The position numbers and the translations under genes are program-made. A stretch of DNA of 64,000 nucleotides, taken from a virus. The notes under the pieces are model-generated. The model was given only the letters and a program-made list of their open reading frames with translations. It had not been told where the DNA came from and ran no database searches. Numbering within the stretch: the first letter of the stretch is position 1; every line of letters starts with the position of its first letter. Positions 18,076 to 62,719 of the stretch are shown here, in pieces. Location: positions 21,329-85,328 of IMG/VR virus record IMGVR_UViG_3300031576_000023. One strand, 5' to 3'.

Positions 18076-18990
18076 ATGAAGGTCCTGTACCTGGGCAGCT
18101 TCGACTTCGACTGGAACACCGAGTCGTATGTCGCCAGGGCCTTCGAGCGGCTTGGCCACGAAGTCCGCAGGCTCAACGAGGCGGACACGAACGAGCACCA
18201 GCTCGGCATGGCCATACGCGAGACCCAGCCGGCCTTGTTTCTATTTGCGAAGGGCCGGCTGAACGGAAACTTCGATCCGGCCGTATCCGGTGTCAGGCAG
18301 GCCCTGCACGACGTGCGCGGCCTGTGCAGGAACGTCTGCTGCTGGGTGTTCGACCTGCTGGCGCACGAGTACAGCCGGCAGCGCTGGACCTGGGCCAGGT
18401 CGGTGAACGAGCTGGTAGACACGTTCTTTGTGACCGACGGCTACTCGGCCACGAAGCTAAGCCGGGCCGTGGTGCTGAGGCAGGGCGTGCCTGACGACTA
18501 CAGGACCGGGATGCGGCGCCCGGAGTGGATAGCCCCTGTAGCGTTCCTGGGCGGCGCGTACGGCGAGAGAAAGCCGCTCTTGGACTTGGTTGCCACGGAG
18601 GTCAAAAACCGCCTAGGAACGCCGCTATTGCACGTACAGACCGTCCGTGGGGCCGACCTGTCCGACATGATGGCCTCTGTCGGGTGCGTTTTTGGCCCGC
18701 ACTGGCCAGCTTACCCATCTTACGGCTCGAACCGTGCCTATGTCGTGGCAGGGTACGGCGGCTGTTTTGTCTGCCCAGTAGCCGACTGGATGACCGAGGA
18801 GGGCTGGGTGGCAGGCGAGCACTACAGGCCGTACGACCCTGGCAACCGGTGGGACGCCGTCGAGCAAGTCCTCGTAGCCGTAGGGGACCGTGAGGGCTCC
18901 GCGGCGATCGCGGCCCGTGCCGCCAAGTTCGCGCGCAGCTCGTTCTCATACGACCGGCGCGTCCAGCAGCTTGTGGACAACCTCAAATGA
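18076..18990 (+). CDS. Glycosyltransferase, CgeB-like
   Basis: 304 residues. MKVLYLGSFDFDWNTESYVARAF is the GT-B N-terminal Rossmann strand and helix; FLGGAYGERKPLL begins the second domain; GSNRAYVVAGYGGCFV corresponds to the donor-binding region of CgeB/DUF3880-type transferases. First gene of an eight-gene sugar operon with overlapping ends. No ribosome site is visible upstream, probably because the IS element sits 10 bases away. Confidence 0.65.
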   Translation: MKVLYLGSFDFDWNTESYVARAFERLGHEVRRLNEADTNEHQLGMAIRETQPALFLFAKGRLNGNFDPAVSGVRQALHDVRGLCRNVCCWVFDLLAHEYSRQRWTWARSVNELVDTFFVTDGYSATKLSRAVVLRQGVPDDYRTGMRRPEWIAPVAFLGGAYGERKPLLDLVATEVKNRLGTPLLHVQTVRGADLSDMMASVGCVFGPHWPAYPSYGSNRAYVVAGYGGCFVCPVADWMTEEGWVAGEHYRPYDPGNRWDAVEQVLVAVGDREGSAAIAARAAKFARSSFSYDRRVQQLVDNLK

Positions 18991-19334
18991 CTCAAAGTCT
19001 CGAAACGGAAAACTGGTTTATCGAGCATTCAATCTCCATCGAGCACGGAAGGCTTCTCTACAGGCTCGCGCCTGGCGGAACGGCCGAGATCGTGGACATC
19101 ATGGTCACTGGCGAGCACCGCCGAGAGGGGTTCGGCAGGGCCATGTTCGAGCGCCTGCTGCGCGAGCTGCCGGACTCCGTGCGGACGGTGTATGCCTTTG
19201 TGCGCTGCGGCAACGGGATCGCCTGCGACTGGTACTGGGCGCTGGGGTTCGCGGACTGGCCGGTCCCTGGGTTCTACGGAGACGACGATGGGCTCGTCAT
19301 GGTGTATAAGAGGCTGCCGGAGGACGGGCCATGA
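18987..19334 (+). CDS. GNAT-family N-acetyltransferase
   Basis: 115 residues. VDIMVTGEHRREGFGRAMFERLL is the acetyl-CoA binding motif A (R/Q-x-x-G-x-G/A pattern), followed by the WYWALGF motif B region. In this sugar cluster it may acylate an amino sugar, for example perosamine, but protein substrates are equally possible. Overlaps both neighbours by 4 bases. Confidence 0.7.
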   Translation: MTQSLETENWFIEHSISIEHGRLLYRLAPGGTAEIVDIMVTGEHRREGFGRAMFERLLRELPDSVRTVYAFVRCGNGIACDWYWALGFADWPVPGFYGDDDGLVMVYKRLPEDGP

Positions 19335-20035
19335 ACGTCTGCGCCTTCACTAGCGTCTGTGAGGAGGACGCCTGCTGGTTGCCGCAGTACCTCGCGGAGG
19401 CCGAGCGGATCGGCATTCAGTTCGTCATGCACCTTGACCGCTGCTCGCGCGAGACAGCGCGTATCGTCGAGTCCCACCGCCTCTTGGCGGGAATCACGCG
19501 GCAGGACAATCACGCCAAGCAGTTCTCCGAGACGGACAAGCAAGCTGCCCTCGATGTCGTCGTGTCATCTGGCTGCCGCTGGGCGCTCGCGTGGGACGTG
19601 GACGAGACGTACGCGCAAGACGCGCGCCGGCACCTGGAGAATCTTGGGAACTACTTCGCAGACCTCTTGCAGGTCCGCATGGTCAATCTCTGGGGCGATG
19701 ACCTGCACGCCAGGGTTGACGGCCCGTTCTCATCCGCGTGGCGGTGCAAGCTTTACCGGATCGGCGCCGGTAACTCGTGGGCGTTCAGGCATCCGCTCGT
19801 CAACGGCGCCGTGGACCTCAGCGGCCGACACGCCAACGGTACGGAGCAGAGAACCGGCCTCGTCTGCCTGCACCACGGGTTTAAGACGCAGACGCTGAGG
19901 CTGGCGCATCGCGAGCGGTGGAACAGTATTTATGGCGCGGCCTTCGGCTATAATCCGTACGGAACGTGGGACTGGGTCTGCGACGAGACAATCGCGCCCA
20001 CCGTCAGGGAACTAGTCGAGGAACTTGCGTGCTGA
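19331..20035 (+). CDS. Glycosyltransferase, GT2/GT92-like
   Basis: 234 residues. A GT-A-like protein: AFTSVCEEDACWLPQYLAEA at the start, and the metal-binding WDVDE after about 90 residues in place of DXD; HHGFKTQTLRLAHRERW near the end. Such proteins act on a nucleotide-sugar donor. Part of the sugar operon. Confidence 0.6.
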   Translation: MNVCAFTSVCEEDACWLPQYLAEAERIGIQFVMHLDRCSRETARIVESHRLLAGITRQDNHAKQFSETDKQAALDVVVSSGCRWALAWDVDETYAQDARRHLENLGNYFADLLQVRMVNLWGDDLHARVDGPFSSAWRCKLYRIGAGNSWAFRHPLVNGAVDLSGRHANGTEQRTGLVCLHHGFKTQTLRLAHRERWNSIYGAAFGYNPYGTWDWVCDETIAPTVRELVEELAC

Positions 20036-20553
20036 GCGACCCCGCAACACTGGAATACTGGGATGCGCGCACCAAGGCGCACGGCGGCGGCGCTCCGCGC
20101 GAGCTGTACTTCAAGAGCGAGGCGTGGGCCAGGTACGACCGAAACGTGCTGGCGTTCATCGCCCGCTTCGTGCGCCGCGGGGTCCGCGTGCTCGATCTCG
20201 GGTGCGGTTTCGGGCTGTACGGGCCACACGTCGAGGCAGCGCGAGGCTCGTGGACCGGAGTTGACTTCTGCGCCGGCATGCGGGACTTATGGCGCACAAG
20301 GGGCGGCATGGTCGGCCGGTTCGTGCAAGCTGACGTGCGGGACGTGGCGGAGCTGCTGAATCTCACCTGGAAGCATGACGTGGTAATGCTCGGCTGCATT
20401 CGCAGAATCCTCGGGCTGAGCCCGGAGGATATGCGCGACAAGTACCTGCCGCTAGTGGCGAACGGGGGCGTGCTGGCCAACGTCGAGGCCAGCGAGTGCC
20501 ACGTGTGGGACCAGGACGGTGCGCCGGTCCAATGGAGCATACCAGGAGCCTGA
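20029..20553 (+). CDS. SAM-dependent methyltransferase, class I
   Basis: 174 residues from GTG 20029. VRVLDLGCGFGLYG is motif I, GVDFCAGM the acidic motif II, and FVQADVRDV the motif III region. It probably methylates a sugar or a glycolipid intermediate. Overlaps the upstream gene by 7 bases. Confidence 0.7.
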   Translation: MLSDPATLEYWDARTKAHGGGAPRELYFKSEAWARYDRNVLAFIARFVRRGVRVLDLGCGFGLYGPHVEAARGSWTGVDFCAGMRDLWRTRGGMVGRFVQADVRDVAELLNLTWKHDVVMLGCIRRILGLSPEDMRDKYLPLVANGGVLANVEASECHVWDQDGAPVQWSIPGA

Positions 20554-20556
20554 CCA

Positions 20557-21606
20557 ATGAACGCGATGCTGCAAGTAGCTGACTGCGGGCCACTGGAAAG
20601 CCTGGCGACGATGTTCCGCGCGATCGGATGGGATTGCTTCGTGCCAGACGCGGGCTTGCGGGCGCGGCTCGTGGCGGCCGGCTGCGACACAGTCCTGGAC
20701 CCGGAGTTTCTGTTCAGAGAGATGGGCTACGACCGTCCGCGCGGCGTCCAGCAAAGCGGAGACCTCGACAGCATGGACCTGTACGTTGATGTCAAGGCGC
20801 AGCGCAACGCGGAAAAAGCCTGGAAGCTTCACCGGCGCTTCGAGGGTCGCACAATCTGGTATCGCATCAACGGCGGTCTGCCTGAAATAACTCCTCAAGG
20901 CGGGGACGAGCTGAACTTCAACTTTCCGATTATCACGCCGAACAGGTACTATCTCGACAGTCCCACGGCATACAAGAACCACGTCGGCTCTCGGCGGGAT
21001 GCGAACTGGGGTGGACTGGCCTACGTCATGTGGCCCCCTTTCGCGCGCGCCTCTGATTATTCTGTGCGCGCCCCGAATTACGACGGGTACTGCAATCCAG
21101 TCTGCTTGATCCACAACGTCACTGGCTGGGGGTACTCCGACCTCGTCGAGCCGCTTCGCCGAGAGGCCAGGCTGCTGTGCTTCGGGTCGCACGGCAGCCC
21201 GGACGGGCTTATCCCGCACAGCGGCGTCCCCGGACTTCTGGCCGCGGCGCTGTGCATGGTCCACCTCAAGAGCAACGACTGCCCAGGATACGCCCTCTAC
21301 GAGGCCCTGCATGCCGGCTGCCCGCTGATCGTTCCGCGCAGACTGATAAAGCGCATGCGGATGGCAGACCTGCTGGTGGAAGGCGCGACGTGCCTCTGCT
21401 TCGACATCGAGGGAGATGAGCGCGGGTGCGGCGCCCTCGACGTCGCGGCCTGCGTCGCCGAGGTCCGCGCTGCCACCAAGCAACTCATGGACTCGGCAGA
21501 GAACGAGCGAATCGGGAATGCCGGGAAGCGCGCGCTGGCCGAGCTGATATGGAATCCAGAGCGCGACGCAGAGTCGTTCAAGGCGTTTTTGCGCAGATAC
21601 GGTTGA
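20557..21606 (+). CDS. Glycosyltransferase, GT-B fold
   Basis: 349 residues. The second half contains KSNDCPGYALYEALHAGCPL, the E-x7-E type donor site of family 1/4 glycosyltransferases. The first half is less conserved. Within the sugar operon, it would elongate a glycan together with its neighbours. Confidence 0.6.
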   Translation: MNAMLQVADCGPLESLATMFRAIGWDCFVPDAGLRARLVAAGCDTVLDPEFLFREMGYDRPRGVQQSGDLDSMDLYVDVKAQRNAEKAWKLHRRFEGRTIWYRINGGLPEITPQGGDELNFNFPIITPNRYYLDSPTAYKNHVGSRRDANWGGLAYVMWPPFARASDYSVRAPNYDGYCNPVCLIHNVTGWGYSDLVEPLRREARLLCFGSHGSPDGLIPHSGVPGLLAAALCMVHLKSNDCPGYALYEALHAGCPLIVPRRLIKRMRMADLLVEGATCLCFDIEGDERGCGALDVAACVAEVRAATKQLMDSAENERIGNAGKRALAELIWNPERDAESFKAFLRRYG

Positions 21607-21621
21607 TCCGGTGTACCGCTC

Positions 21622-22182
21622 ATGACCAGTTTCGAGGAAACCTGGAGCCTCCTGCCTGGGAACGGCTGGCTCGACCGCGACGAGGCCGAACTGCTATGGA
21701 ACGCCGTCAAGCTCGAAGATGACGTGCTTGAGGCCGGGGTGTACTGGGGCAGGTCGGCCGTGCTGCTGGCGCACCGGCTCGCGGAGGGTTCCGGCAAGTT
21801 CTGGCTCTGCGACCCGTTCATCGACGGCCACCACTTCGACACGCTGGCCGAGGGAGCGGTGGCGTGGCAGTGCGTCCTGGCAACTGTCGAGGACATCCTG
21901 CCGGCGGAGCGGCTCTGCCTCGTGCCGTGCTCCGAGAGCGATCTGCACGTCTTGGCTGCCGGGACCCTGCGGCCGGGCCTGGTTTACCTTGACGCAGACC
22001 ACTCCTACGAGGCGACGAGCGCCGCGCTGGCTAGGTGGTCGCCGCTCGCTGGGGCCGTGGCGGCGCACGACTACGCCGGGACCGGTGGCGGGGCCGAGGT
22101 CAAGCGCGCCGTTGACGAACTGCCTGGCTGGAGGATCAAACAGCGAGCGTCGCGGATGGTCGTGCTTGAAAGACACGCATGA
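21622..22182 (+). CDS. Class I methyltransferase (Methyltransf_24-like)
   Basis: 186 residues. VLEAGVYWGRSAVLLAHRL replaces the classic motif I, and LVYLDADHSYEATSAALARW plus AVAAHDY match the Methyltransf_24 family, which often methylates sugars in polysaccharide clusters. It overlaps gmd by 4 bases. Confidence 0.65.
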   Translation: MTSFEETWSLLPGNGWLDRDEAELLWNAVKLEDDVLEAGVYWGRSAVLLAHRLAEGSGKFWLCDPFIDGHHFDTLAEGAVAWQCVLATVEDILPAERLCLVPCSESDLHVLAAGTLRPGLVYLDADHSYEATSAALARWSPLAGAVAAHDYAGTGGGAEVKRAVDELPGWRIKQRASRMVVLERHA

Positions 22183-23129
22183 GCAAGCGCGCGCTGATCA
22201 CCGGCGTCTCCGGCCAGGACGGCTCGTACCTCGCCGAGTACCTGCTGGGGCTTGAGTACGAGGTCTACGGGCTCGTGCGGCCGCGCGCGTGCGCGACCAA
22301 CCACAACCTCGCGGAATGCCGCAAGCACACGGGCTTCTGCGAGCTGGAAGGAGACCTACTCGACCAGCCGTCTCTGGACGCGGCAGTCCAGGGCGCGCGA
22401 CCGCACGAAGTGTACAACCTCGCCGGCCACACCTTCGTGGGCAGTAGCTGGGACAGCCCGGAGCACGTTTTCCAGGTCAACGCCCTCGGCACGCTGCGAA
22501 TGCTGCAGGCGGTCCAGCGGCACGCGCCGTCCGCGCGGTTCTACCAGGCCAGCACCTCCGAGATGTTTGGAAACCAGCCGGCGCCGCAGAGCGAGGCCAC
22601 GCCGTTCGTGCCGTGCAGCCCCTATGGAATCGCCAAGCTGGCAGCACACTGGTTCACGGTAGAGTTTCGCTCCCGAGGTCTGTGGGCCTGCTGCGGAATC
22701 GCGTTCAACCACGAGTCTGCGCGGCGCGGCGGCCAGTTTGTGACCGGCAAGCTAGCCAGCCACGCGGCGTTCAAGCAGGCCACCAACAGCAGCCAGAAGC
22801 TCCAGGTCGGCAACCTGCACGCCAGGCGGGACTGGGGCCACGCGCGCGACTATGTGCGAGCCATGCACGCGATGATGCAGGCCAATGCGCCCACCGACTA
22901 CGTCATCGGTACGGGAAGGTCGCTCTCCGTCTTGGAGTTCGCGGAACTCGTTGGCCTCGGTACTGACGACCTTGAAGTCACTAGCAAGCACATGCGCCCG
23001 ACCGACATCGCCGAGCTCCGAGCCGACGCCAGCAAGATCAAGGCGGCGGTCGGCTGGTCGCCCAGCGTCGCCGTGGAGCAGCTCGCCGCCGAGATGCTTC
23101 GGCATCACGCCGACTGCTGGAAGCGATGA
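22179..23129 (+). CDS. gmd: GDP-mannose 4,6-dehydratase
   Basis: 316 residues. GVSGQDGSYLAEYL (about 9-22) is the NADP-binding loop specific to GDP-mannose dehydratases; STSEMFG and YGIAK provide the catalytic Thr/Ser, Glu, Tyr and Lys; the NHES sequence and RRDWGHARDYV follow as in the family. It converts GDP-D-mannose to GDP-4-keto-6-deoxy-D-mannose, the precursor of fucose, rhamnose and perosamine. The adjacent DegT-type enzyme suggests perosamine. Confidence 0.85.
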   Translation: MSKRALITGVSGQDGSYLAEYLLGLEYEVYGLVRPRACATNHNLAECRKHTGFCELEGDLLDQPSLDAAVQGARPHEVYNLAGHTFVGSSWDSPEHVFQVNALGTLRMLQAVQRHAPSARFYQASTSEMFGNQPAPQSEATPFVPCSPYGIAKLAAHWFTVEFRSRGLWACCGIAFNHESARRGGQFVTGKLASHAAFKQATNSSQKLQVGNLHARRDWGHARDYVRAMHAMMQANAPTDYVIGTGRSLSVLEFAELVGLGTDDLEVTSKHMRPTDIAELRADASKIKAAVGWSPSVAVEQLAAEMLRHHADCWKR

Positions 23130-24112
23130 AACTGGCCGTGCTCGGACGCGCCGACCCGACCGGCCTGGGCGCTATGACCGACGACTTCTGCCGCGCCATG
23201 GACCCCGATCTCGCCCTCGTCGTGGACTACTCCACCAGAGGCAAGACTGATCCAGGGCTGGTCCCCGGCAGCATTGTACTGCCCCAGACTGAGCTTCGGT
23301 TCAGCGACTTCTGGGCCGAGATGCTGGCCGGCTACGACGCTCTCGTGGGCTTTGAGACGTTCTACGACGAGGCCGTCCTGCGCGGCGCCAAGCTGGCGGG
23401 ATGCAAGACGATCCTGTTTCCGATGTGGGAGTGTACGCAGCCGTGGTGCGACGCCGCAGATGTGATGGTCTGCCTGAGCCCAGCCGACGAGGCGAGGTAT
23501 CCGCGCGGGATCCCGATGCGGTGGGCCGTGGACCCCAGGCGGTTCCAGCCTCGCACTGACATATGTTGGCCGCCGAAACTGATCCAGCACAATGCCGGCA
23601 CGCTCGGCCTGAACGGGAGGAACGGGACGGAGGAGTTCTTGCAGGCGGCCAGGTATCTCTCTGGAACTGGCGTCGCGGTGCTCGTGCGCGCACAGGAGCA
23701 GATTCCAACGGAGTGGCGGACGCCCGACGCCTACTATGCGGGCATGGTGGACCAGCGGGAGGACTTGTGGAGGGAGATGGACCTGTTCGTCTTTCCTCTG
23801 AAGATTCCTGGCCTTGCGTTGCCGCTAATCGAGGCCGCTGCCGTCGGCATCCCGACTCTGATCGTCGATATCGCTGAGCGACGCGACTACCACGCGGACT
23901 TTCGAGTCCCAATCGGCCGGACGTACCGCTGTCGGATCGGCGGTAACGAGGTCGAGTACCGCGCCGCGGACGTAGAGGCCCTGGGTAGGCGGATGCGGTC
24001 CATGGCGCTCGGGAACGTCCGCGTGCGAGTCCCGCCACATCCTCCGACGTGGCACAAGTTCAAGACACGGTGGCAGAACACCGTCACGCCACTGATCGGA
24101 AGAACGCCGTGA
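23126..24112 (+). CDS. Glycosyltransferase, GT4-like
   Basis: 328 residues. The N-terminus MKLAVLGRADPTGLGAMTDD and the C-terminal domain with DLFVFPLKIPGLALPLIEAA (the E-x7-E equivalent) fit GT-B family 4. Last gene of the sugar operon; its 3' end overlaps the convergent aminotransferase gene by 29 bases. Confidence 0.65.
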   Translation: MKLAVLGRADPTGLGAMTDDFCRAMDPDLALVVDYSTRGKTDPGLVPGSIVLPQTELRFSDFWAEMLAGYDALVGFETFYDEAVLRGAKLAGCKTILFPMWECTQPWCDAADVMVCLSPADEARYPRGIPMRWAVDPRRFQPRTDICWPPKLIQHNAGTLGLNGRNGTEEFLQAARYLSGTGVAVLVRAQEQIPTEWRTPDAYYAGMVDQREDLWREMDLFVFPLKIPGLALPLIEAAAVGIPTLIVDIAERRDYHADFRVPIGRTYRCRIGGNEVEYRAADVEALGRRMRSMALGNVRVRVPPHPPTWHKFKTRWQNTVTPLIGRTP

Positions 24113-25217
24113 TGACCTCGCACACGTAGTCAACCGCCCCATCCTCTAGCATCCCCTGGTACAGCGGCAGGTATAAGCCGCGCGCAGATAGGTCGTCGGC
24201 GACGGGATAGTCGCACTCGCATGCGTAATGACGCAGGTGGTTCTGCCTGTGCATCGGCACGAAGTAGGTCCGTGTCTCAATCCCGTGGTGCGCCAGCTCG
24301 CTCCGCAGGTCGTCGCGCCAGAACGGCGCGTCGCGAGTCACCAGTAGCGGGAAGACCCACCAGACGCTTCCAGCAGGACGCGAGGGGAACTCGATCCAGC
24401 GCGTATGGCGTAGGTTGTCTCGATACGCGGCGGCGATCATCTCGCGCTCACTCAAGATCGCGCTAAGGCGCTTCGTCTGTGAGTAGCCGAGCGCAGCCTG
24501 CATGGCCGTCATGCGGTAGCCGTAGGCCAACTCAGTATGTCGAAAATGCTCGTCATTGCTGAAGGCGTGCGCTTGCAGTTTTCGCAGCCATATGGCACTT
24601 TCCAGGTCGCGACACACCACCATTCCGCCTTCGCCAGTGGTGATGATTTTGTTCCCGTAGAAACTGTACGTTGCCAGGCTGCATGTTGCCAGGTCGCGAA
24701 GCCCTGCCGTTGCGCCGTGCGCCTCGGAGTTGTCCAGGATCAACGGGCATCCTTGCGCATTCGCCACGACAGTAGCCTCGTCTGCCGGAACACCGTATAG
24801 CGCTACCGGCATGACGGCCGCTGGCCTATGCTCGCGAATCAGTTTGTCGAGCACCTTCGGGTCCATGTTGCCCGTTGCCGGCTCGCTGTCGCAAAATACA
24901 GGGATCGCCCCGCAGTAAAGCACGGCGTTGGCGCAGGCCACCATCGTTAGCACTGGCAGTATTACCCTGTCGCCAGGCCGGACCAACGCCGCTCGCAAGG
25001 CCAGATGCAGTGCTGTGGTTCCGCTGTTGCAGGCTACGCCGTGGGCATAACCGCTGGCCGCGGCGAACGCTCGCTCGAACTGTTCGACGTATGGACCGCC
25101 GCTGACCCAACCGTCCTTTAGGCACGCGGCAACGGCCTGCCTATCGTTAGCCGTGATCTTCGGCCTGGCGACTGGTACGTACTTCTCAGCGCTAATGTTG
25201 ACGATCGGGTCAGGCAT
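24084..25217 (-). CDS. Perosamine synthase-like aminotransferase (DegT/DnrJ/EryC1)
   Basis: 377 residues. A PLP-dependent sugar aminotransferase: CNSGTTALHLAL phosphate-binding region, DNSEAHGA with the PLP-ring aspartate, and the lysine K190 in SFYGNKIITTGEGGM. The GNK.ITTGEGGM form is typical of GDP-perosamine synthases. With gmd it would make GDP-perosamine from GDP-4-keto-6-deoxymannose and glutamate. It lies on the opposite strand from gmd, preceded by a 39-residue gene. Confidence 0.7.
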   Translation of the reverse strand: MPDPIVNISAEKYVPVARPKITANDRQAVAACLKDGWVSGGPYVEQFERAFAAASGYAHGVACNSGTTALHLALRAALVRPGDRVILPVLTMVACANAVLYCGAIPVFCDSEPATGNMDPKVLDKLIREHRPAAVMPVALYGVPADEATVVANAQGCPLILDNSEAHGATAGLRDLATCSLATYSFYGNKIITTGEGGMVVCRDLESAIWLRKLQAHAFSNDEHFRHTELAYGYRMTAMQAALGYSQTKRLSAILSEREMIAAAYRDNLRHTRWIEFPSRPAGSVWWVFPLLVTRDAPFWRDDLRSELAHHGIETRTYFVPMHRQNHLRHYACECDYPVADDLSARGLYLPLYQGMLEDGAVDYVCEVITAFFRSVA

Positions 25218-37812: not shown

Positions 37813-38859
37813 ATGCCGCTGCACAGGTTACCTCCATACATCGTGCACTCGATGATCGAGGCGGACGAGCTGGCCCAGGTGATCGACTGGGGGCTAGCGT
37901 TCGGCGGCGTCCCGGATGCCTGGAAGGTGACGCGCGGCGAGGGGATCGTCGTCGGCGTCGTTGACACCGGCTGCCAGAGCGACCACCCGGACCTTGCCGG
38001 CCAGCTCGCCATCCCGCCGGTCGATTTTACTGGCAGCGCAGTTGGCGGAGAAGACCTGAGCGGGCATGGAACGCACGTCGCAGGAACCGTGGCTGGCAGC
38101 GACAACCAGACTGGCGTTGTGGGCGTCGCACCGGCCTGCAAGCTGGTGATCGCTAAGGGCCTGGGGGACGACGGCAGCGGCCTCGGCGAGTGGATCGCGG
38201 CGGGGGTGGACCACTGCGTCGCCAACGGCGCGCACATCGTGAGCATGAGTCTCGGCAGTCCGGTGCCAGACCCCTTCATTCACGCGGCGATCAAGCGCGC
38301 CGTGGCGGCCGGCCGAATCGTGATTTGCGCGGCTGGAAATTCTGGCCCTAGCAATCCGACAGATATCGAGTACCCAGGTAGGTTTGAGGAGGTCATCGCG
38401 ATTGCAGCGAGCAACAAAGACGGCAAGATCAGCCGGTTCTCCTCGCGCGGGCCGAGCGTGGCGTTCGCGTTTCCGGGTGAGAACATCCTGAGTTGCTACC
38501 CGACGAACAGGTACGCCAGATTATCGGGTACGAGCATGGCCTGCCCTTTTGCGGCCGGCGCGATCGCCCTGCTGCTGGCGAAGCACAGGACGCACGGCGG
38601 GTCTACCCCGGTGACCACTCGGGAGCACGTGATCGAGCACTATCGCCGGTTCGCCAAGGACGTGGGGGAACCAGGGCGGGACTTCGAGAGCGGGTGGGGT
38701 ATCGGCCTGGTCGGGGAAGTGATTGGCGAGCAGGAGCCTCAACCTATCCAGCCGGTACCAGGAGACGCAGCGAAGGAGTATACCTATCACATCGGGGGAG
38801 CGACTTTTGTCGTGCACGTGCCGTCTGTCCTGCTGGACAGGGCGTCAGTTACCTGGTAG
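37813..38859 (+). CDS. Subtilisin-like serine protease (S8)
   Basis: 348 residues. The full triad is present: D51 in VVDTGC, H85 in GHGTHVAG, S241 in SGTSMACP, plus N176 in AAGNSG. There is no obvious signal peptide or prodomain, so it may stay in the cytoplasm or be carried in the virion. Unusual on a phage genome; it starts an island of cellular-looking genes. The C-terminal 50 residues carry a Gln/Pro-rich linker and a beta hairpin. Confidence 0.85.
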   Translation: MPLHRLPPYIVHSMIEADELAQVIDWGLAFGGVPDAWKVTRGEGIVVGVVDTGCQSDHPDLAGQLAIPPVDFTGSAVGGEDLSGHGTHVAGTVAGSDNQTGVVGVAPACKLVIAKGLGDDGSGLGEWIAAGVDHCVANGAHIVSMSLGSPVPDPFIHAAIKRAVAAGRIVICAAGNSGPSNPTDIEYPGRFEEVIAIAASNKDGKISRFSSRGPSVAFAFPGENILSCYPTNRYARLSGTSMACPFAAGAIALLLAKHRTHGGSTPVTTREHVIEHYRRFAKDVGEPGRDFESGWGIGLVGEVIGEQEPQPIQPVPGDAAKEYTYHIGGATFVVHVPSVLLDRASVTW

Positions 38860-38869
38860 GAGCGCTGGG

Positions 38870-39802
38870 ATGCTGGTCTTGCTGCTCGCGCTGTGTGCCG
38901 ACCCGATGATGCCGATACCGTCTGACAACCCGCTGACGCCGGCCAAGGCGGCCCTGGGGCGCAAGCTGTTCTTCGACGGCCGGCTGTCGGCGGACGGGAC
39001 GGTAAGCTGCGCCACCTGCCACCAGCCCGCTAGGGGATGGGCTGACGGCCTTCCCGTCTCAAAGGGCTCCCAGGGGCGCCAGGGAACGCGCAACGCCCCC
39101 ACGATCGCCAACGCGGCCTGGGAGCGCCTGATGTTCCGGGACGGCAGGGCGGCCCTCCTGGAGGGCCAGGCGCTGCTCCCGCTGACGAGCGCGTCCGAGA
39201 TGGGCAATCGGAGTCTGGGCCAGGTAGTCTCCAGGCTGAACGCGACCGGCTACCGCGAGGAGTTCCGGGAGGCGTTCGGGACCGAGGTCACTGCCGACGG
39301 GATCGCCAAGGCGATAGCCTCCTTCGAGCGGACGGTGGTTGCCAGGGACGCCCCGGTAGACGAGTTTCTGGCCGGGCGGACCTGGGCGCTGACGAGGGCG
39401 CAGAAGCACGGCATGCGGGTATTTGAGCGGTCTGGTTGTCGGTCATGCCACGCCGGGCCGGATTTTCGGGACGGGCAGTTTCACAACACGGGGACTTCGG
39501 TCGGCGAGCGGGACCAGGGCAGGTTTACGATCACCGGCAACCGTACCGACTTCGACGCCTTCAAGACTCCGACTTTGCGGGAGGTTGGCAGGACGGCGCC
39601 GTACTTTCACTCCGGGCGCGCGGCGACGCTGCGGGACGTCGTGGAGCACTACGACGCGGGAGGCGTAGCAACAACAGGGCTTGATCCGAGGGTAAGGCCG
39701 CTCGGGCTTCCAGAAAATGACAAGCAGGCGCTGGTAGAGTTTCTGACCGGTGCGTTCCTGTCTGGATCACTGGTCATAGAGAAGCCGGAGCTACCGCAAT
39801 GA
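38870..39802 (+). CDS. Di-haem cytochrome c peroxidase (CcpA/MauG family)
   Basis: 310 residues. A short hydrophobic start (MLVLLLALCA) would export it. Two c-type haem sites are intact, CATCH (47-51) and CRSCH (190-194), with the family's early LFFDGRLSADGTVSC, and TAPYFHSGRAATL near the end. The family reduces H2O2 in the periplasm or, as MauG, oxidises protein side chains. Haem attachment would rely on host Ccm. A very unusual phage gene. Confidence 0.85.
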   Translation: MLVLLLALCADPMMPIPSDNPLTPAKAALGRKLFFDGRLSADGTVSCATCHQPARGWADGLPVSKGSQGRQGTRNAPTIANAAWERLMFRDGRAALLEGQALLPLTSASEMGNRSLGQVVSRLNATGYREEFREAFGTEVTADGIAKAIASFERTVVARDAPVDEFLAGRTWALTRAQKHGMRVFERSGCRSCHAGPDFRDGQFHNTGTSVGERDQGRFTITGNRTDFDAFKTPTLREVGRTAPYFHSGRAATLRDVVEHYDAGGVATTGLDPRVRPLGLPENDKQALVEFLTGAFLSGSLVIEKPELPQ

Positions 39803-41098: not shown

Positions 41099-41127
41099 AA
41101 GTGTGCGACGCTTCCCGGCGTCCGTGT

Positions 41128-41168
41128 GCCCTGCGCCGGCAGAATAGGTCGGCGCAGGGCGTTTATTT
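41128..41168 (+). terminator. Intrinsic terminator
   Basis: GCCCTGCGCC (41128-41137) and GGCGCAGGGC (41151-41160) form a perfect 10-bp stem with a 13-base loop, followed by GTTTATTT. It closes the subtilase-peroxidase operon before the ParB/TET operon. Confidence 0.7.
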
Positions 41169-41183: not shown

Positions 41184-41828
41184 ATGCCAGCCGCTGATAT
41201 TACTGGACCGCTCAAGATTGTGATGCGGAAGCTTGCCGACTTGCGGCCTGCGGACTACAACCCGCGGCAGTTGACGGAGAAGCAGTTCGCCGATATTCGC
41301 GCTAGCCTGGTGCGGTTTGGGTTCGTTGACCCGCTCGTAGTTAATGTGCACCCGGAGCGAGCCAACGTAATCATCGGTGGACACCAGCGCTGGCGCATTG
41401 CGGCCGACCTCGGGATCACGGACGTGCCGTGCGTGGAGGTGCGCCTCGAGCCTTCTCTGGAGCGCGAGCTGAACGTGCGCTTGAACAAGAACTCAGGAGA
41501 GTGGGACTGGGACGCGCTGGCTAATCAGTTTGACTTCGCCGAGTTAATGGACTGGGGGTTCACGGAACGCGAACTGGCCGGCTCATTTCCGCTGCCGAAT
41601 CTTGGAGGTGATCAAGCCGCGCGGGCCGTCGGCAGTGAACTCGGAGAATCGCACGTGCGGATGTTTCAGTTGTTTTTTGACGTTGCTGGGTATGAGGAGT
41701 TTACGCTGCTGGTGGAGCAGTGTTGCCGTGAGCGTGGGCACTCGAACCCGAGTGACGCCGTGTTGGTTTGTTTGCGAGAGGCGGCTGCTGGTCATGAAAT
41801 GCCATCTTGTGCAGAAGGCGCTGTCTGA
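41184..41828 (+). CDS. ParB/Srx-domain protein 3 (DNA modification operon)
   Basis: 214 residues from ATG 41184, next to GAGG. The ParB-like part is RKLADLRPADYNPRQL, then FVDPLVVN and VIIGGHQRW ('GGHxR' loop). This type often lies upstream of DNA-modifying enzymes in phages, where ParB-like proteins accompany TET/JBP oxygenases. It overlaps the next gene by 35 bases. Confidence 0.7.
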   Translation: MPAADITGPLKIVMRKLADLRPADYNPRQLTEKQFADIRASLVRFGFVDPLVVNVHPERANVIIGGHQRWRIAADLGITDVPCVEVRLEPSLERELNVRLNKNSGEWDWDALANQFDFAELMDWGFTERELAGSFPLPNLGGDQAARAVGSELGESHVRMFQLFFDVAGYEEFTLLVEQCCRERGHSNPSDAVLVCLREAAAGHEMPSCAEGAV

Positions 41829-42717
41829 CAAGGCAGCCAGTGAGCTGGCCGGCACGTTGTTGGGCGCGAGTGCTTACGATGTGCTGGTGCAAGAGTCCGC
41901 CGCGGTCCGGGATGTTGATGGGCAGCTCATGCTCAAATACATCCAGGGGGCCATCACTGAGGACTTGTGCTTGGCGGCTTATAGTGGTTTGCGCAACGCG
42001 GCAGTGCTGACAGAAAACCGAGGCATGGCGGCCGGCGTGATTCCAAGCGCGATAGGCGCGATCGCGGACGTCGGACGTATTGGCAGCCGCTCTAGGACGC
42101 GGTTCCGCGTAGCGAAAAAGGATGGTACTCTTTCCAACACGACCCGTGCGATTGTAGTGCACAGCGGCATCGTGGGTTATTTTGACAGGTCGGCTCGGGC
42201 ACCGTATTGCCGTCAGACGGCGTATACGGCACAGCAAGCCGCCAAGTACGAGCGAGCCCTACCGTTCTTCCAGGCTGCGAGTCGGCTGTTTGCTGAGCAT
42301 GTACCTGAGCGCTACGCCGTGCAGGCTGAAGTTGTGTCTGTGACGAGTCCCGCATTCGTGATACCGGGGACTGTGTTTACGACGGTCACGGTGAACCGTA
42401 ACTGGCAGACGGCGGTGCACAGGGATGCTGGCGATCTCGAAAGCGGTTATGGAGTGATGGCGGTGCTTGATGTAGGCCAGTACGGAGGCTGCTACTTGTG
42501 CTTTCCGCAGTACCGGTTTGCCGTGGACATGAGACGCGGAGGAGTGTGTTTAGCTGACGTGCATCAGTGGCATGGCAACACGCCCTTCGTGCGCAAGAGG
42601 GGTCGCTACGAACGCTTGTCCCTGGTGCTTTACTACCGGGAGCGCATGATGGAGTGCGGGAGCCCGGCGGAGGAGTTGCAGCGAGCCAAACATAGAAAAC
42701 GCGGCGATCGACTTTGA
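41794..42717 (+). CDS. TET/JBP-type 2-oxoglutarate/Fe(II) dioxygenase
   Basis: 307 residues. The catalytic double-stranded beta-helix shows VHRDAGD (209-211 H-x-D), GYGVMAVLDVGQYGGCYL, HQWHGNTPF with the distal histidine (H257 or H260), and RLSLVLYYRE with the oxoglutarate-binding arginine. YCRQTAYT before it fits phage TET/JBP members. They oxidise a methyl group on thymine or 5-methylcytosine in DNA, making a handle for sugars. No cytosine-5 methyltransferase is visible in this window, so thymine or an upstream enzyme must supply the substrate. Confidence 0.7.
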   Translation: MKCHLVQKALSDKAASELAGTLLGASAYDVLVQESAAVRDVDGQLMLKYIQGAITEDLCLAAYSGLRNAAVLTENRGMAAGVIPSAIGAIADVGRIGSRSRTRFRVAKKDGTLSNTTRAIVVHSGIVGYFDRSARAPYCRQTAYTAQQAAKYERALPFFQAASRLFAEHVPERYAVQAEVVSVTSPAFVIPGTVFTTVTVNRNWQTAVHRDAGDLESGYGVMAVLDVGQYGGCYLCFPQYRFAVDMRRGGVCLADVHQWHGNTPFVRKRGRYERLSLVLYYRERMMECGSPAEELQRAKHRKRGDRL

Positions 42718-43859
42718 TGAGGAAGCTGGCCGTCCTAGTGTTCATTGACTATCAGCTAGGCGGCATCGGCACACAAGCGGTCGATTTCACGAGGCTGGCA
42801 CGCGAGCATGGGTTCGCCGCTGATTTGATAACCTTTACCGCGTCGAAGAAGCCGCGCGAAGCACGTGAGCCAGGTCTCGCGGTGGCGCGAGACGGAAAGG
42901 GCCTTGAGCTTCAGGCGTGCATGCTCTCCGTCCATCCGGAGCGGCAGGGGGCGTCACTCAGCCGGCTGGCCGAATACGACCTAAGGCTCTGGGTCGGAGT
43001 TGCGCCGCATTGCAAGCCTGGAGACCAGGTATACGGCTTCTTCGAGGCCACCCTGCGGCAGTTACCAGGTCGGAACGTCGCTTTCGCTACAGATCGTTTT
43101 GTTAATGACCTGTATTCGTGGGTGATACCGCACCTGCATCGCTTTACTTGCGTGACGGCTTTCGCCGATGCGTACGCCGCAACATTGCGGGCGCACGGAA
43201 TCCCGGTGGACGTGGTGCCGCTCGCGCCGCTCGACGCTTGGGACCAGCGGCGTCTGGTGCTGCCAAGTCGCAAACCGCGGCAGCTGTTTTGGCCGCATCA
43301 GTGGCGCGGCTGGAAGAACATCAGTATGTTCCTGGAGAGCGCCGGAAAACTCGAAGTGCCGGAGATAAACGTGTACGCGAGTGGCGCGGGGTTCGAGTAT
43401 TCGGCTTTCCGACGTAGCGATGCGTACAGTGATCTCGTGCGCAGCGATCGCCATAACCCCTCTCACTTCAATCCCCGTGGCAGGCTCAACCTCTTGGGAT
43501 TTGTGCCACATGCCACGGTGTTACAGGCTTACCGCGATCATGCGGCGACGCCAGACTTGACGGGGATCAGCAGTAAAAGGCACACGGCAAACAGTTACGT
43601 CGGGAATTACCAGTGCGCCACGCTGGAAGCCATGTGCTTCGGCTGCGCGGTGCTGAAGATGGAGACGACCGTAGCGCCCTATAGTGCCATCCCACGCGAA
43701 GCGGTTGCGGTGTTGCGGGCTGGTGCTGCTGACTATGCTGCCGAGATGAACGTCGCATTGCGCGGAGGTCTTGATAGTGCCGCGGAGCAAGCCTTCGCGT
43801 GGATTGAAAGGTCGTGCGACCCCTATCAGCTATTCGGCAGTATCGTTGGAGAAAGCTGA
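42717..43859 (+). CDS. Glycosyltransferase, GT-B fold
   Basis: 380 residues from ATG 42717 (TGATG overlap). GGIGTQAVDFTRLAREHGFAA starts the GT4-like fold; the second domain has ATLEAMCFGCAVL, the E-x7-E region. Placed right behind the dioxygenase, it may glycosylate oxidised bases. Whether it acts on DNA is inference. Confidence 0.65.
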   Translation: MRKLAVLVFIDYQLGGIGTQAVDFTRLAREHGFAADLITFTASKKPREAREPGLAVARDGKGLELQACMLSVHPERQGASLSRLAEYDLRLWVGVAPHCKPGDQVYGFFEATLRQLPGRNVAFATDRFVNDLYSWVIPHLHRFTCVTAFADAYAATLRAHGIPVDVVPLAPLDAWDQRRLVLPSRKPRQLFWPHQWRGWKNISMFLESAGKLEVPEINVYASGAGFEYSAFRRSDAYSDLVRSDRHNPSHFNPRGRLNLLGFVPHATVLQAYRDHAATPDLTGISSKRHTANSYVGNYQCATLEAMCFGCAVLKMETTVAPYSAIPREAVAVLRAGAADYAAEMNVALRGGLDSAAEQAFAWIERSCDPYQLFGSIVGES

Positions 43860-44878
43860 TGAAGATCGGGATTACAGGAGGCTGTGGATTTGTCGGCGGT
43901 CATTTGTCGCGGCGGTTTCGTGAGCGCGGCGACGCGGTTGTGGTTGTTGACTCGCTGATCCGTCGCGGTTCTGAGATTACCGCGGCAAGCTTGTCGCGCA
44001 TGGGAGTGGAGGTCGTACGCGGTGATACCCGGTTGCCAGGCGATCTACATGCCCTGCACGGCTGCGACGTCATTTTGGATTGTTCTGCACAGCCCTCGGC
44101 TGTGGCTGGGTTCACGAAGCCGCTTGCAGACTTCGAGCACAATACGTTAGGCGTGATGAACGTCCTGGAGTTGTGCCGGCGCGAGCAATGTGCGCTGATT
44201 TTCTGGAGCACTAATAAGGTCTACAGCGGTTCTCTGGTGAACGCTATACCGCGCGTTGAGCTGGCTACGCGGTTCGCATGGTCTCACGCTGGGATCGGTG
44301 AGGACTTCCCACTCGATGGCGCAGACAAGAGCATCTACGGCGCCACCAAGGCCGCAGCGGACCTGCTGTGCCAGGAGTGGGGGGTGGCATTTGATTTCCC
44401 GGTCTGCGTGAATCGGTGTAGCTGTCTTGCTGGGCCGATGCAGTGGGGCAAATCTGAGCAGGGCTGGGTGGCGTGGTTTTGCATCGCGGCCGAGCTTGGC
44501 CTGCCGGTCGAGCTGATTGGCTGGGGCGGTAAGCAGGTGCGCGACGTCTTGTTCGCGCCCGATCTTTGCGACTTGATCGAGCACCAGGTCGACGCCAGGG
44601 CGACTGGCGTGTTCGCAATCGGTGGCGGTGCGTCTTGCACGCTTTCCCCGCGTGAGTTGGTGTCTTGGCTGAGCGCTGAGCGCGGCTTTGATCTGCCGCA
44701 TACGCTGGTCACTGAGGCGCGGCGCTCCGATCATGCGATTTACGTCAGCGATATTAGGCGCGTGCGTCACGCCTTTTCTTGGCGACCGCGCGTTTCGCTG
44801 GCTGCTGGTCTAACAGCCATCGTGCGCTGGGCACGCGAGTGCCACGGCGAGCTGGCAGGCCTGTACGCGGCCGGCTGA
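43859..44878 (+). CDS. NDP-sugar epimerase, CDP-paratose 2-epimerase-like
   Basis: 339 residues. GITGGCGFVGGH is the NAD-binding loop; STNKVYSG and YGATK the SDR active-site Ser/Thr and Y-x3-K. The STNKVY sequence and the later GGGASCTLSPREL fit CDP-paratose/tyvelose 2-epimerases. It would prepare the sugar donor for the preceding glycosyltransferase. No CDP-hexose genes are visible here, so the real substrate is open. Confidence 0.7.
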   Translation: MKIGITGGCGFVGGHLSRRFRERGDAVVVVDSLIRRGSEITAASLSRMGVEVVRGDTRLPGDLHALHGCDVILDCSAQPSAVAGFTKPLADFEHNTLGVMNVLELCRREQCALIFWSTNKVYSGSLVNAIPRVELATRFAWSHAGIGEDFPLDGADKSIYGATKAAADLLCQEWGVAFDFPVCVNRCSCLAGPMQWGKSEQGWVAWFCIAAELGLPVELIGWGGKQVRDVLFAPDLCDLIEHQVDARATGVFAIGGGASCTLSPRELVSWLSAERGFDLPHTLVTEARRSDHAIYVSDIRRVRHAFSWRPRVSLAAGLTAIVRWARECHGELAGLYAAG

Positions 44879-45629: not shown

Positions 45630-46496
45630 ATGAACGCTAGCGAGCTAACGTTCGGGATCGAGGTGGAGTGCTACATCTCGCGGGAGAATCTTCAGGCCGC
45701 CGGCTGGGAGGTCGGCGGCTACCACAACGGCCGCGAGATTCCTGATTTTGTGGGGTGGAACGCTCAGCGCGACAGCAGCCTGAACAGCCCCCCCAGCTAC
45801 GAGCTGGCAGGGGTCGAAGTAGTATCTGGGGTTCTGACGGGGGCGGAAGGGCTAGCGGAAGTGCGGCGGATGCTCGCGACCCTCCAGAGGATGGGGGCGA
45901 AAGTGAACCGCACGTGCGGGTTTCACGTGCATGTGGGGTTCGCGGGCCGCTCAGTCCAGGAGCTGCGGCGCTTGGTCTGCTTGGTCGCGAGCCATGAAGA
46001 GGCGTTGTACGCGGTTACCGGGAGTCGCGCCAGGCGCGATTCCTGCTACTGCAAATCGGTGAAGGACGGGGCGATGAATGGTTTTGCTCGCCCCGTGCGC
46101 AGTCACAGAGAGGCGTCTGGATGGTGCGACAGGTTCCGCGTGCTGAACCTCACGAATCTGCTCGGAGACTCGGCCCGCAAGCCGACCGTGGAGTTCCGGG
46201 TGTTCGCGGGGACCACGAACGAGGTCAAGATATTGGGCTATATCCAGCTCTGCCTTGGACTGGTCTCGAAGGCTGTGGCGATGCGGTCGGCGGCGCCGTG
46301 GCATAGTAGACCGGTGCACAATAAGTCGCTTGCCGGTTACGGGCCGGGCCGCACTGCGGTGTCTAAATTGCTGTGGCAACTCGGCTGGCGAGGCGATGCG
46401 GCACACCATGGGGTGCTGGACTTGGCAGGCGTGGCGAAGACGAAGACGGAGTTGTATCGGCTCGCAAAGAAGTACGACAGCGGCAGCGAGGAGTAG
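45630..46496 (+). CDS. Amidoligase-family protein
   Basis: 288 residues. The pattern of the phage/bacterial amidoligase_2 family (glutamine-synthetase-like COOH-NH2 ligases) is clear: TFGIEVECYI, a DSSL motif, ELAGVEVVSGVL, then NRTCGFHVHVG and a late VEFRVFAGT. These enzymes ATP-dependently join carboxyl and amino groups on peptides or small molecules. A class II amidotransferase follows, a known partner. Confidence 0.75.
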   Translation: MNASELTFGIEVECYISRENLQAAGWEVGGYHNGREIPDFVGWNAQRDSSLNSPPSYELAGVEVVSGVLTGAEGLAEVRRMLATLQRMGAKVNRTCGFHVHVGFAGRSVQELRRLVCLVASHEEALYAVTGSRARRDSCYCKSVKDGAMNGFARPVRSHREASGWCDRFRVLNLTNLLGDSARKPTVEFRVFAGTTNEVKILGYIQLCLGLVSKAVAMRSAAPWHSRPVHNKSLAGYGPGRTAVSKLLWQLGWRGDAAHHGVLDLAGVAKTKTELYRLAKKYDSGSEE

Positions 46497-46576
46497 CCGA
46501 AACGCCCGGCAACGGGCGTCGCCGTCCGGGTGGTCCCCGGCGGCCTGAAGAGGCAAACCAATCACAGGAGAAGCAT

Positions 46577-47254
46577 ATGTGTGGATTGTTCGGGTTCGTC
46601 GGGCTGGCGCCCGACGTTGGGAAACTCATTCAGATCGCGGAGGCGACCGCGAACGCGCGCGGCCGCGACGCCTGGGGAGTGGCGTGGGTGGACTGGCGGG
46701 GCCGGCTGCGGCACCACAAGGCCGCCGGCCAGCTTGACCGCCGCGCGCTGGCGGACGCGGCAGATGCCGTCGCGCTTATTGGGCACTGCCGATTGGCCAC
46801 GCATGGCGACCCGCGCGCCAACGAGAATAACCACCCGCATGCTTGCGACGGCGGCTGGCTGGTCCACAACGGCATGCTCCGACAGCATTGGAGCACGGCG
46901 ATAGAGCACGGTCTGCGGCTCACGACGGAGTGCGACAGCGAGCTACTGGCTCGGCTGATCGAGGTAGCCGAGGCCGACGACCGCTGCGAGCAGGTGTCCT
47001 GGGCGATCGAGACGGCCCTCGGCGACAGCGGCATGCCGTGCGCGGTGATGGCCCTCTGGCGGGACCAGCTCGTGATCGCGCGGGCAGGGAACCCGCTGGC
47101 GCGGAGCAAGCAGCGCGAGGGGACGTACATCGCCAGCCTGGCGGAGTACCTGCCAGGCTGCGGCGAGTCGTACCCTGACTGGGAGGTGGATACGATTCCG
47201 GTGCCCCAGCCGACAGCCAAGAATGGCAGGAGTCGTAGCCGTGCCGCATCCTGA
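46577..47254 (+). CDS. Class II glutamine amidotransferase
   Basis: 225 residues. MCGLFGFVG puts the catalytic Cys at position 2, and GHCRLATHGDPRANENNHPH matches the glutamine pocket; the later CDSELLARL is also typical. It releases ammonia from glutamine for a synthetase partner; the preceding amidoligase is the natural candidate. Leader AATCACAGGAGAAGC before the ATG. Confidence 0.8.
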   Translation: MCGLFGFVGLAPDVGKLIQIAEATANARGRDAWGVAWVDWRGRLRHHKAAGQLDRRALADAADAVALIGHCRLATHGDPRANENNHPHACDGGWLVHNGMLRQHWSTAIEHGLRLTTECDSELLARLIEVAEADDRCEQVSWAIETALGDSGMPCAVMALWRDQLVIARAGNPLARSKQREGTYIASLAEYLPGCGESYPDWEVDTIPVPQPTAKNGRSRSRAAS

Positions 47255-61687: not shown

Positions 61688-62719
61688 ATGTACTTCGGTG
61701 GTAAATCCCGCTGCGCTAATTTGATATGGCGAGCCTTGGGCGACGTGCGCAATTACGTCGAACCATTCTTCGGCAGCGGCGCGGTGCTATTGGCGCGTCC
61801 ACGGCCGTTTCGCGGAACGGAAACGGTCAACGATGCCTGCCAGTTCGTCGAGAACTTTTGGCGCGCTGTGCAAGCCGAGCCTGACACCGTGGCCAAGTGG
61901 TTGGATTGGCCTGTAAATGAGACTCGTCTTGAGGCGGTCCATAAATGGCTGGTTACCGCCGCGCGCAAGGAGGAGCACGCGCGGCGGATGAAGGATGAGA
62001 TGGGTTATTACGACCCGAAAATCGCCGGTCTCTGGTGCTGGGGTCTGTGCGCGTGGATAGGTAAGGGCTGGTGCGCCGGCGCGTGGTATGGGCCTGACGA
62101 TGAGCGCAACGCAGGCACGGGCGTCAATGTTCGGGACAAGCAACGAGGCGGCAAGCGCCCGCATTTGAACAGGGGGCAGGGCATCCACAAGCAGCGCCCG
62201 CACCTGGGCGACGCTGGGCAGGGCGTTCACAAGCAGCTCCAGCACCTAGGCGACGCTGGACAGGGTGAGTGTGTTCGCCGATTGGAAGTGCTTGTGAACT
62301 GGATGCGGCAGTTGCGCGACCGCTTGCGCAATGTGCGAGTGTGCTGCGGGGATTGGTCGCGGGTCTGCACGCACACGCCGACCAGCAACCTGGGGCTTAC
62401 GGGAATTTTCTTGGATCCGCCGTATTCCGATGCCGCCGGTCGAGATGAGAACATTTACGCTCGTGAGAGCCTGACAGTAGCTCACGACGTGCGAGCATGG
62501 TGTCTCCAGCGAGGGTGCGATAAAGACATGCGCATAGTGCTCGCGGGTTACGAAGGCGAGCACGAAGAGCTGGAAGTTAACGGTTGGCGTGTCGAATCTT
62601 GGACGGCGAACGGTGGATATGGCGTGCAATCCGGCAATGGCGAGTACACTAACAAATACAAAGAACGGCTGTGGATGAGTCCGGCCTGCGTGGATGTTGA
62701 GCGGAGATTATTCGTATGA
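61688..62719 (+). CDS. Adenine-specific DNA methyltransferase, Dam/D12 class
   Basis: 343 residues. MYFGGKSR (the FxGGK motif), VEPFFGSGAVLLA (SAM site) and FLDPPYSD (catalytic DPPY) are intact. The region about 150-195 holds 14-residue repeats (KQRPHLGDAGQGVH form). Methylates adenine in DNA, probably to escape restriction or mark phage DNA. The stop overlaps the next start. Confidence 0.8.
   Translation: MYFGGKSRCANLIWRALGDVRNYVEPFFGSGAVLLARPRPFRGTETVNDACQFVENFWRAVQAEPDTVAKWLDWPVNETRLEAVHKWLVTAARKEEHARRMKDEMGYYDPKIAGLWCWGLCAWIGKGWCAGAWYGPDDERNAGTGVNVRDKQRGGKRPHLNRGQGIHKQRPHLGDAGQGVHKQLQHLGDAGQGECVRRLEVLVNWMRQLRDRLRNVRVCCGDWSRVCTHTPTSNLGLTGIFLDPPYSDAAGRDENIYARESLTVAHDVRAWCLQRGCDKDMRIVLAGYEGEHEELEVNGWRVESWTANGGYGVQSGNGEYTNKYKERLWMSPACVDVERRLFV
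62155..62268 (+). repeat. Tandem 42-bp repeats inside the methyltransferase gene
   Basis: Nearly three units of a 14-codon repeat (PHLGDAGQGVHKQR type). They lie between the SAM-binding half and the catalytic half. Confidence 0.6.

What the first reader, a model, noticed from the sequence alone, without database searches (positions are those of the whole stretch)
41184..44878. Probable DNA hypermodification operon: ParB, TET/JBP dioxygenase, glycosyltransferase, sugar epimerase
The four genes overlap and are bounded by a terminator. Known from comparative genomics: phage TET/JBP oxygenases occur with ParB-like proteins and glycosyltransferases that decorate oxidised bases. Here HRD, the distal His and the Arg are conserved. 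An NDP-sugar epimerase in the same operon suggests an unusual sugar on DNA.
Basis: partly seen in the sequence, partly recalled or inferred. Interest (0 to 1): 0.7.

Follow-up and report, generated by a model that had tools for sequence, protein, structure and literature searches.

The report
Phage operon for sugar-coated DNA bases
A bacterial virus carries four tightly coupled genes that most likely oxidise a base of its own DNA and attach an unusual sugar to it; relatives suggest the oxidised base is more often ordinary thymine, as in trypanosome base J, than the methylated cytosine that well-studied TET enzymes use.

Summary
Window 41184-44878 holds four translationally coupled genes: ParB_N protein, Tet_JBP dioxygenase, GT4-like (GT-B) glycosyltransferase and NDP-sugar epimerase of the CDP-tyvelose 2-epimerase family. 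The TET model (pLDDT 92) matches human TET2 at Z 21.8, against 13.7 for AlkB-type enzymes; the HxD, distal His and Arg are invariant in 83 of 83 relatives. ParB sits directly upstream of TET in 71 of 73 viral loci. The same ParB-TET-GT-epimerase set recurs in a different 163-kb virus, and the only viral homologues found of this GT lie beside a TET. DNA hypermodification is therefore well supported by inference, though undemonstrated. Comparative data argue that this need not be the partner: C5-MTase is in 4 of 82 contigs of this TET clade and none of 6 complete cultured phages with related TETs, but directly beside TET in 61 of 61 loci of another phage TET clade. The clades also differ at the residue aligned with TET2's base-contacting H1904 (Arg versus Asp/Gly). 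Thymine is thus the slightly favoured substrate, making a base-J-like product. New variant of a known kind.

The parts
41126..41162 (+). Intrinsic-terminator-like stem-loop immediately upstream of the operon (15 pairs, 11 G-C, followed by TTTATTT)
   Evidence: -34 kcal/mol, z -4.6
41184..41828 (+). ParB_N-domain protein (214 aa; alternative GTG start 41178); ParB-like box GGHQRWRIA
   Evidence: PF02195 2.8e-8; phrog_498/620; ParB directly upstream of TET in 71 of 73 relatives
41794..42717 (+). TET/JBP 2OG-Fe(II) dioxygenase (307 aa): H209-x-D211, H260, R274, D214, R282
   Evidence: PF12851 1.7e-24; AlphaFold pLDDT 92.3; TET2 Z 21.8
42717..43859 (+). GT4-like GT-B glycosyltransferase (380 aa; TTG start possible at 42714)
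   Evidence: weak PF13439; homologue L086 PF00534 3.3e-4; EAM..G motif, 52% identity to the L086 GT
43859..44878 (+). NDP-sugar epimerase of the CDP-tyvelose 2-epimerase type (339 aa)
   Evidence: PF01370 4.9e-29; PDB 9rl0 6.2e-42 and 1orr 5.3e-39, with GxxGxxG, STNKVY, YGxxK and QGW aligned

Best explanation
This is a post-replicative DNA base hypermodification operon of a tailed phage. Inferred steps: (1) the TET/JBP enzyme flips a base out of the phage DNA and hydroxylates the 5-methyl of a pyrimidine, most likely thymine to 5-hydroxymethyluracil; (2) the GT4-like transferase adds a sugar to that hydroxymethyl group, giving a base-J-like nucleotide; (3) the CDP-tyvelose-2-epimerase-like enzyme inverts a hydroxyl of a host or phage NDP-sugar, so the donor is not plain UDP-glucose; (4) the ParB_N protein, translated just before TET, binds or slides on DNA and directs the oxidase. 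The likely benefit is protection from host nucleases, or packaging. Shown here: gene content, coupling, fold, conserved catalytic residues, and recurrence of the same set in another virus. Inferred: action on DNA, choice of base, identity of the sugar.
For: Domains and coupling. TET fold specific to DNA TETs: TET2 Z 21.8, NgTET1 19.1, next non-TET 13.7. ParB directly upstream in 71 of 73 relatives; the next gene is a GATase-II, ADDT or FkbM gene in most, and 59 of 80 loci carry both an ADDT (amino acid:DNA transferase, PF18724) and a P-loop kinase, an arrangement like phage thymidine hypermodification. The cultured phage P12024L has TET followed by TAGT (TET-associated glycosyltransferase, 4.2e-21) and no C5-MTase. 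The same ParB-TET-GT-epimerase set is in the 163-kb virus L086 and in L099; all viral GT homologues found sit beside TET. For thymine: C5-MTase over cut-off in 4 of 82 contigs (2 of 26 of at least 25 kb) and 0 of 6 complete cultured phages of the Arg type, versus adjacent in 61 of 61 loci of the Melnitz-type TET clade (Fisher p about 1e-19 for 2/26 versus 61/61). L086 has no C5-MTase, and its thymidylate-synthase homologue keeps the Asn that marks dUMP enzymes. At the residue aligned with TET2 H1904 the window clade has Arg in 83/83 and in all 6 cultured phages; the C5-MTase-adjacent clade has Asp or Gly in 63/63.
Against: The window contig does encode an intact C5-MTase, and the closest TET in the tree, L005, also has one about 3 kb upstream, so 5mC may be the substrate in this sub-branch. 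D214, at the position of NgTET1 D234 (recalled as a contact to cytosine N4), is kept. The Arg/Asp difference separates two clades, so it is not independent evidence. Many contigs are fragments. No base modification has been measured.
Confidence: 0.5

Rival explanations
1. Cytosine route: the phage C5-MTase (contig 106-1461) makes 5mC, TET oxidises it to 5hmC, and the GT glycosylates 5hmC, as in described phage TET clusters.
For: Intact C5-MTase with PPCQ, ENV and QxRxR motifs on the same contig; the TET sister L005 also carries one; Melnitz-type TETs always sit beside a C5-MTase; PMC12730594 states that phages combine C5-MTase, TET and GTs to make glycosylated cytosine.
Against: The C5-MTase is some 62 kb from TET on the contig and only 28% identical over about 200 aa to the L005 enzyme. 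The same four-gene set in L086 has no C5-MTase, nor do most of the clade and all six cultured Arg-type phages.
Confidence: 0.35
2. TET and ParB modify DNA, but the GT and epimerase glycosylate something else (virion protein, surface polysaccharide) and are neighbours by chance; the contig carries other such genes at 18076-25217.
For: A separate sugar island with GTs, GDP-mannose dehydratase and an aminotransferase exists in the same phage; the epimerase family is widespread in viruses without TET.
Against: All three junctions overlap; the same GT and epimerase follow TET in L086 and L099; no viral homologue of this GT was found away from TET.
Confidence: 0.12
3. The modification continues with an amide or amino group: the downstream amidoligase (45630-46496) and class-II glutamine amidotransferase (46577-47254) act on the oxidised or glycosylated base.
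For: GATase-II directly follows TET in 43 relatives, and five TET loci carry an amidoligase-like protein.
Against: The window GATase is only about 25% identical to those and scores better against the GlmS N-terminal family. Amidoligases are common in phages with no TET hit. A 750-bp gap with a small ORF separates them from the epimerase.
Confidence: 0.1

Closest known systems
Phage TET clusters with C5-MTase and glycosyltransferases (Burke et al. 2021 PNAS, recalled, paper not held; Iyer et al. 2013, recalled)
   Same: Phage-encoded TET with GTs, proposed to act after replication on phage DNA; ParB neighbours were noted by Iyer et al.
   Different: The TET belongs to a clade that mostly lacks a C5-MTase and has Arg where the C5-MTase-linked clade has Asp/Gly; the GT is GT4-like, not TAGT; a CDP-tyvelose-type epimerase is in the operon.
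Base J pathway of kinetoplastids (JBP1/JBP2 plus J-glucosyltransferase; PMC10276184)
   Same: TET/JBP-family hydroxylase followed by a glycosyltransferase; thymine as inferred target.
   Different: Phage operon with ParB and epimerase; no J-binding domain; the substrate is not shown.
RB69-type DNA arabinosylation (PMC6024577, PMC13390438)
   Same: Phage DNA GT accompanied by its own sugar-modifying genes, including an epimerase.
   Different: There the hydroxyl is put on the nucleotide by a thymidylate-synthase-type enzyme before replication; here by a TET, and PF00303 is absent from this contig.
ParB-TET-GATase-ADDT-kinase cassettes of marine phages (loci L008-L083)
   Same: Orthologous TET with an adjacent ParB-domain protein.
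   Different: Those end in amino acid:DNA transferase and a P-loop kinase; the window has GT and epimerase instead, and neither ADDT nor kinase was detected in called genes of the contig.
CDP-tyvelose 2-epimerase (PDB 1ORR, 9RL0)
   Same: Full-length similarity with cofactor and catalytic motifs aligned.
   Different: Sequence divergence leaves the actual nucleotide sugar open.

Membership tests
TET/JBP DNA dioxygenase | DSBH fold closest to TETs rather than to other 2OG oxygenases | tested here: met
   TET2 Z 21.8, 254 residues aligned, rmsd 3.2; NgTET1 19.1; best non-TET 13.7
TET/JBP DNA dioxygenase | HxD...H iron triad and 2OG Arg | tested here: met
   H209, D211, H260, R274 invariant in 83/83 relatives
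TET/JBP DNA dioxygenase | Oxidation of a 5-methylpyrimidine in DNA | not testable with these tools
   needs an enzyme assay
C5-MTase-paired phage TET (5mC type) | C5-MTase in the same genome | tested here: met
   PF00145 1.2e-51 at contig 106-1461
C5-MTase-paired phage TET (5mC type) | C5-MTase adjacent to or consistently co-inherited with the TET | tested here: not met
   about 62 kb away on the contig; absent in 78 of 82 clade contigs and from L086; versus 61/61 adjacent in the Melnitz clade
JBP-like thymine hydroxylase | Acts on thymine | not testable with these tools
   inferred only from the lack of C5-MTase in the clade
JBP-like thymine hydroxylase | Occurs with a hydroxymethyl-directed sugar transferase | tested here: inconclusive
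   GT4-like GT next door; its acceptor is unknown
CDP-tyvelose 2-epimerase | Full-length similarity with GxxGxxG and YxxxK | tested here: met
CDP-tyvelose 2-epimerase | Epimerises CDP-paratose at C2 | not testable with these tools
   no CDP-paratose pathway was looked for outside the phage
TAGT (PF20691) TET-associated glycosyltransferase | Match to PF20691 | tested here: not met
   no hit for the window GT; relatives L004, L100 and P12024L do hit
ParB/Noc partition protein | ParB_N domain | tested here: met
   PF02195 34.1 bits, cut-off 26.3
ParB/Noc partition protein | Above the full ParB family cut-off (TIGR00180) | tested here: not met
   30.9 versus 58.45 bits: domain only

The most novel reading that the evidence does not exclude
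A prokaryotic virus makes a base-J-like nucleotide: a JBP-type thymine dioxygenase guided by a ParB-domain protein, with a GT4-family transferase adding a C2-epimerised (manno- or tyvelose-type) sugar. The whole ParB-linked phage TET clade, including the many ADDT/kinase cassettes, would then be thymine-directed, with Arg282 as a specificity mark.
Probability: 0.35. Interest if true: 0.8.

Novelty: new variant of a known kind. Interest (0 to 1): 0.56.

Why it matters
Thymine oxidation by TET/JBP enzymes is established, to my knowledge, only in kinetoplastid base J. A large phage clade of TETs without cytosine methyltransferases would be a candidate source of that chemistry, and would mean that phage TETs should not be read as 5mC enzymes by default. 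The residue split (Arg versus Asp/Gly) and complete cultured phages such as P12024L and HTVC112P make the question testable. The epimerase points to a DNA sugar other than glucose.

Tried and rejected
GT structure prediction with two sequences failed (pLDDT 42) and was not used for a fold claim. Searches for the GT in cultured phages and GTDB genomes found nothing. Thymidylate-synthase-type hydroxymethylase in this contig: none. The L086 thymidylate-synthase homologue was checked as a possible dCMP enzyme; it keeps the Asn of dUMP enzymes. Amidoligase and GATase as part of the same cassette: considered, but the window copies are only distant relatives of the TET-linked ones. A downstream terminator after the epimerase was not better than chance. 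The PNAS 2021 and NAR 2013 papers are not in the library, so statements about them are from memory. The DLP6 paper was read for evidence of restriction-resistant DNA; its text reports no result on this.

Full report
Observation. The window is bases 21329-85328 of an 85,328-bp virus contig. At 41184-44878 four + strand genes encode a ParB_N protein, a Tet_JBP dioxygenase, a glycosyltransferase and an epimerase. Each pair overlaps: the TET ATG (41794) lies within ParB (stop 41828), GT starts in the TET stop (TTTGATGA), and the epimerase ATG (43859) overlaps the GT stop. A strong terminator-like hairpin precedes ParB (41126-41162, -34 kcal/mol, z -4.6); the downstream candidate is not better than shuffles. 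The GT is barely visible to Pfam by itself (E 0.03), but its homologue in locus L086 matches Glycos_transf_1 across the C-terminal domain (E 3.3e-4), and the pair share 52% identity.

The oxygenase is a real TET. An AlphaFold model from 42 relatives has pLDDT 92.3. VIA-align ranks human TET2 first (Z 21.8, 254 residues), then NgTET1 (19.1), CMD1 (18.6) and CcTET (17.2), with a clear drop to AlkB and FTO at 13.7 and below; Foldseek agrees. H209, D211, H260 and R274 are invariant in 83 of 83 relatives.

Neighbourhoods. Of 188 viral relatives, 80 loci were kept. ParB lies directly upstream of TET in 71 of 73 evaluable cases, mostly overlapping. Downstream come GATase-II (43), ADDT (16) or FkbM methyltransferase (8), and 59 of 80 loci have both an ADDT amino acid:DNA transferase and a P-loop kinase. 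Some have TAGT, the TET-associated glycosyltransferase. The company is thus DNA base modification. The exact ParB-TET-GT-epimerase set recurs, with two extra genes between GT and epimerase, in a 163-kb virus (L086) and in a 7-kb contig (L099). No homologue of this GT was found in viruses outside such a locus. The epimerase aligns end to end with CDP-tyvelose 2-epimerases, with the cofactor and catalytic motifs kept.

Which base? The contig has an intact C5-MTase at its far end (106-1461; PF00145 1.2e-51, TIGR00675 above its cut-off) and no PF00303 protein. Taken alone this supports 5mC. The comparison weakens it: PF00145 is over its cut-off in only 4 of 82 contigs with this TET type (2 of 26 contigs of at least 25 kb), against a background of 3 of 16 in other viral contigs, and in none of six complete cultured phages with Arg-type TETs (HTVC112P, P12024L, Cr30, DLP6, S-CBWM1, C48C1). 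L086, with the same four genes, has none. A second phage TET clade (Melnitz type) has a C5-MTase directly beside TET in all 61 loci with room for one. The two clades differ at the position aligned with TET2 H1904: Arg in all 83 of the first and in the six cultured phages, Asp or Gly in 63 of 63 of the second. H1904 as a base contact is recalled from the TET2 structure papers. Since thymine is the only 5-methylpyrimidine present without a C5-MTase, the simplest reading of the clade is thymine oxidation, as in base J. Against this, the nearest TET in the tree (L005, support 0.94) also has a C5-MTase about 3 kb upstream, so this sub-branch may differ; the two MTases are only 28% identical. I hold thymine at about 0.5 and 5mC at 0.35.

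Mechanism. Shown: the genes, their coupling, the TET fold and the catalytic residues. Inferred: ParB brings TET to DNA, TET hydroxylates the methyl group, GT adds a sugar, and the epimerase makes the donor non-standard. A precedent for phage-encoded sugar-modifying genes beside DNA glycosyltransferases is RB69-type arabinosylation (PMC13390438). The following amidoligase and GATase-II are suggestive, since GATase-II is frequent in the related cassettes, but the window copies are distant from those and amidoligases are common in phages without TET; I leave them out of the operon.

Verdict. It is a new variant of a known kind.

Noticed in passing
window 18076-25217: Sugar island behind the tail genes: three GT-B-like GTs, a GNAT, a methyltransferase, GDP-mannose 4,6-dehydratase (22179-23129) and a DegT-type aminotransferase on the - strand (24084-25217); could make a GDP-4-amino-6-deoxy sugar for virion glycosylation.
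   Followed up: partly
window 16879-17985 (-): TnpB/IS605-type protein (Cas12f1-like_TNB 7.2e-24) inside the phage, next to the sugar island.
   Followed up: no
window 45630-47254: Amidoligase_2 protein followed by a stand-alone class-II glutamine amidotransferase with Cys2; possible separate amidation module.
   Followed up: partly
window 37852-39802; L002:2488-3783: Subtilase-like protease, a cytochrome-c-peroxidase-like protein (by sequence motif only) and a sulfatase-like protein with an N-terminal LESRDLL motif; suggests a planctomycete host.
   Followed up: no
window 61688-62719: D12-class adenine methyltransferase match limited to the first 68 residues of a 343-aa protein; possibly a split or fused gene.
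   Followed up: no
L008-L083 (e.g. L053:1083-6420): Recurrent marine cassette ParB-TET-GATaseII-GNAT-ADDT-P-loop kinase running straight into the large terminase; a TET-started amino-acid hypermodification pathway that deserves its own study.
   Followed up: partly
L111:16409-18674 (phage P12024L): Complete cultured phage with TET, TAGT and N4/N6 methyltransferase in a row and no C5-MTase: a ready laboratory test case.
   Followed up: partly
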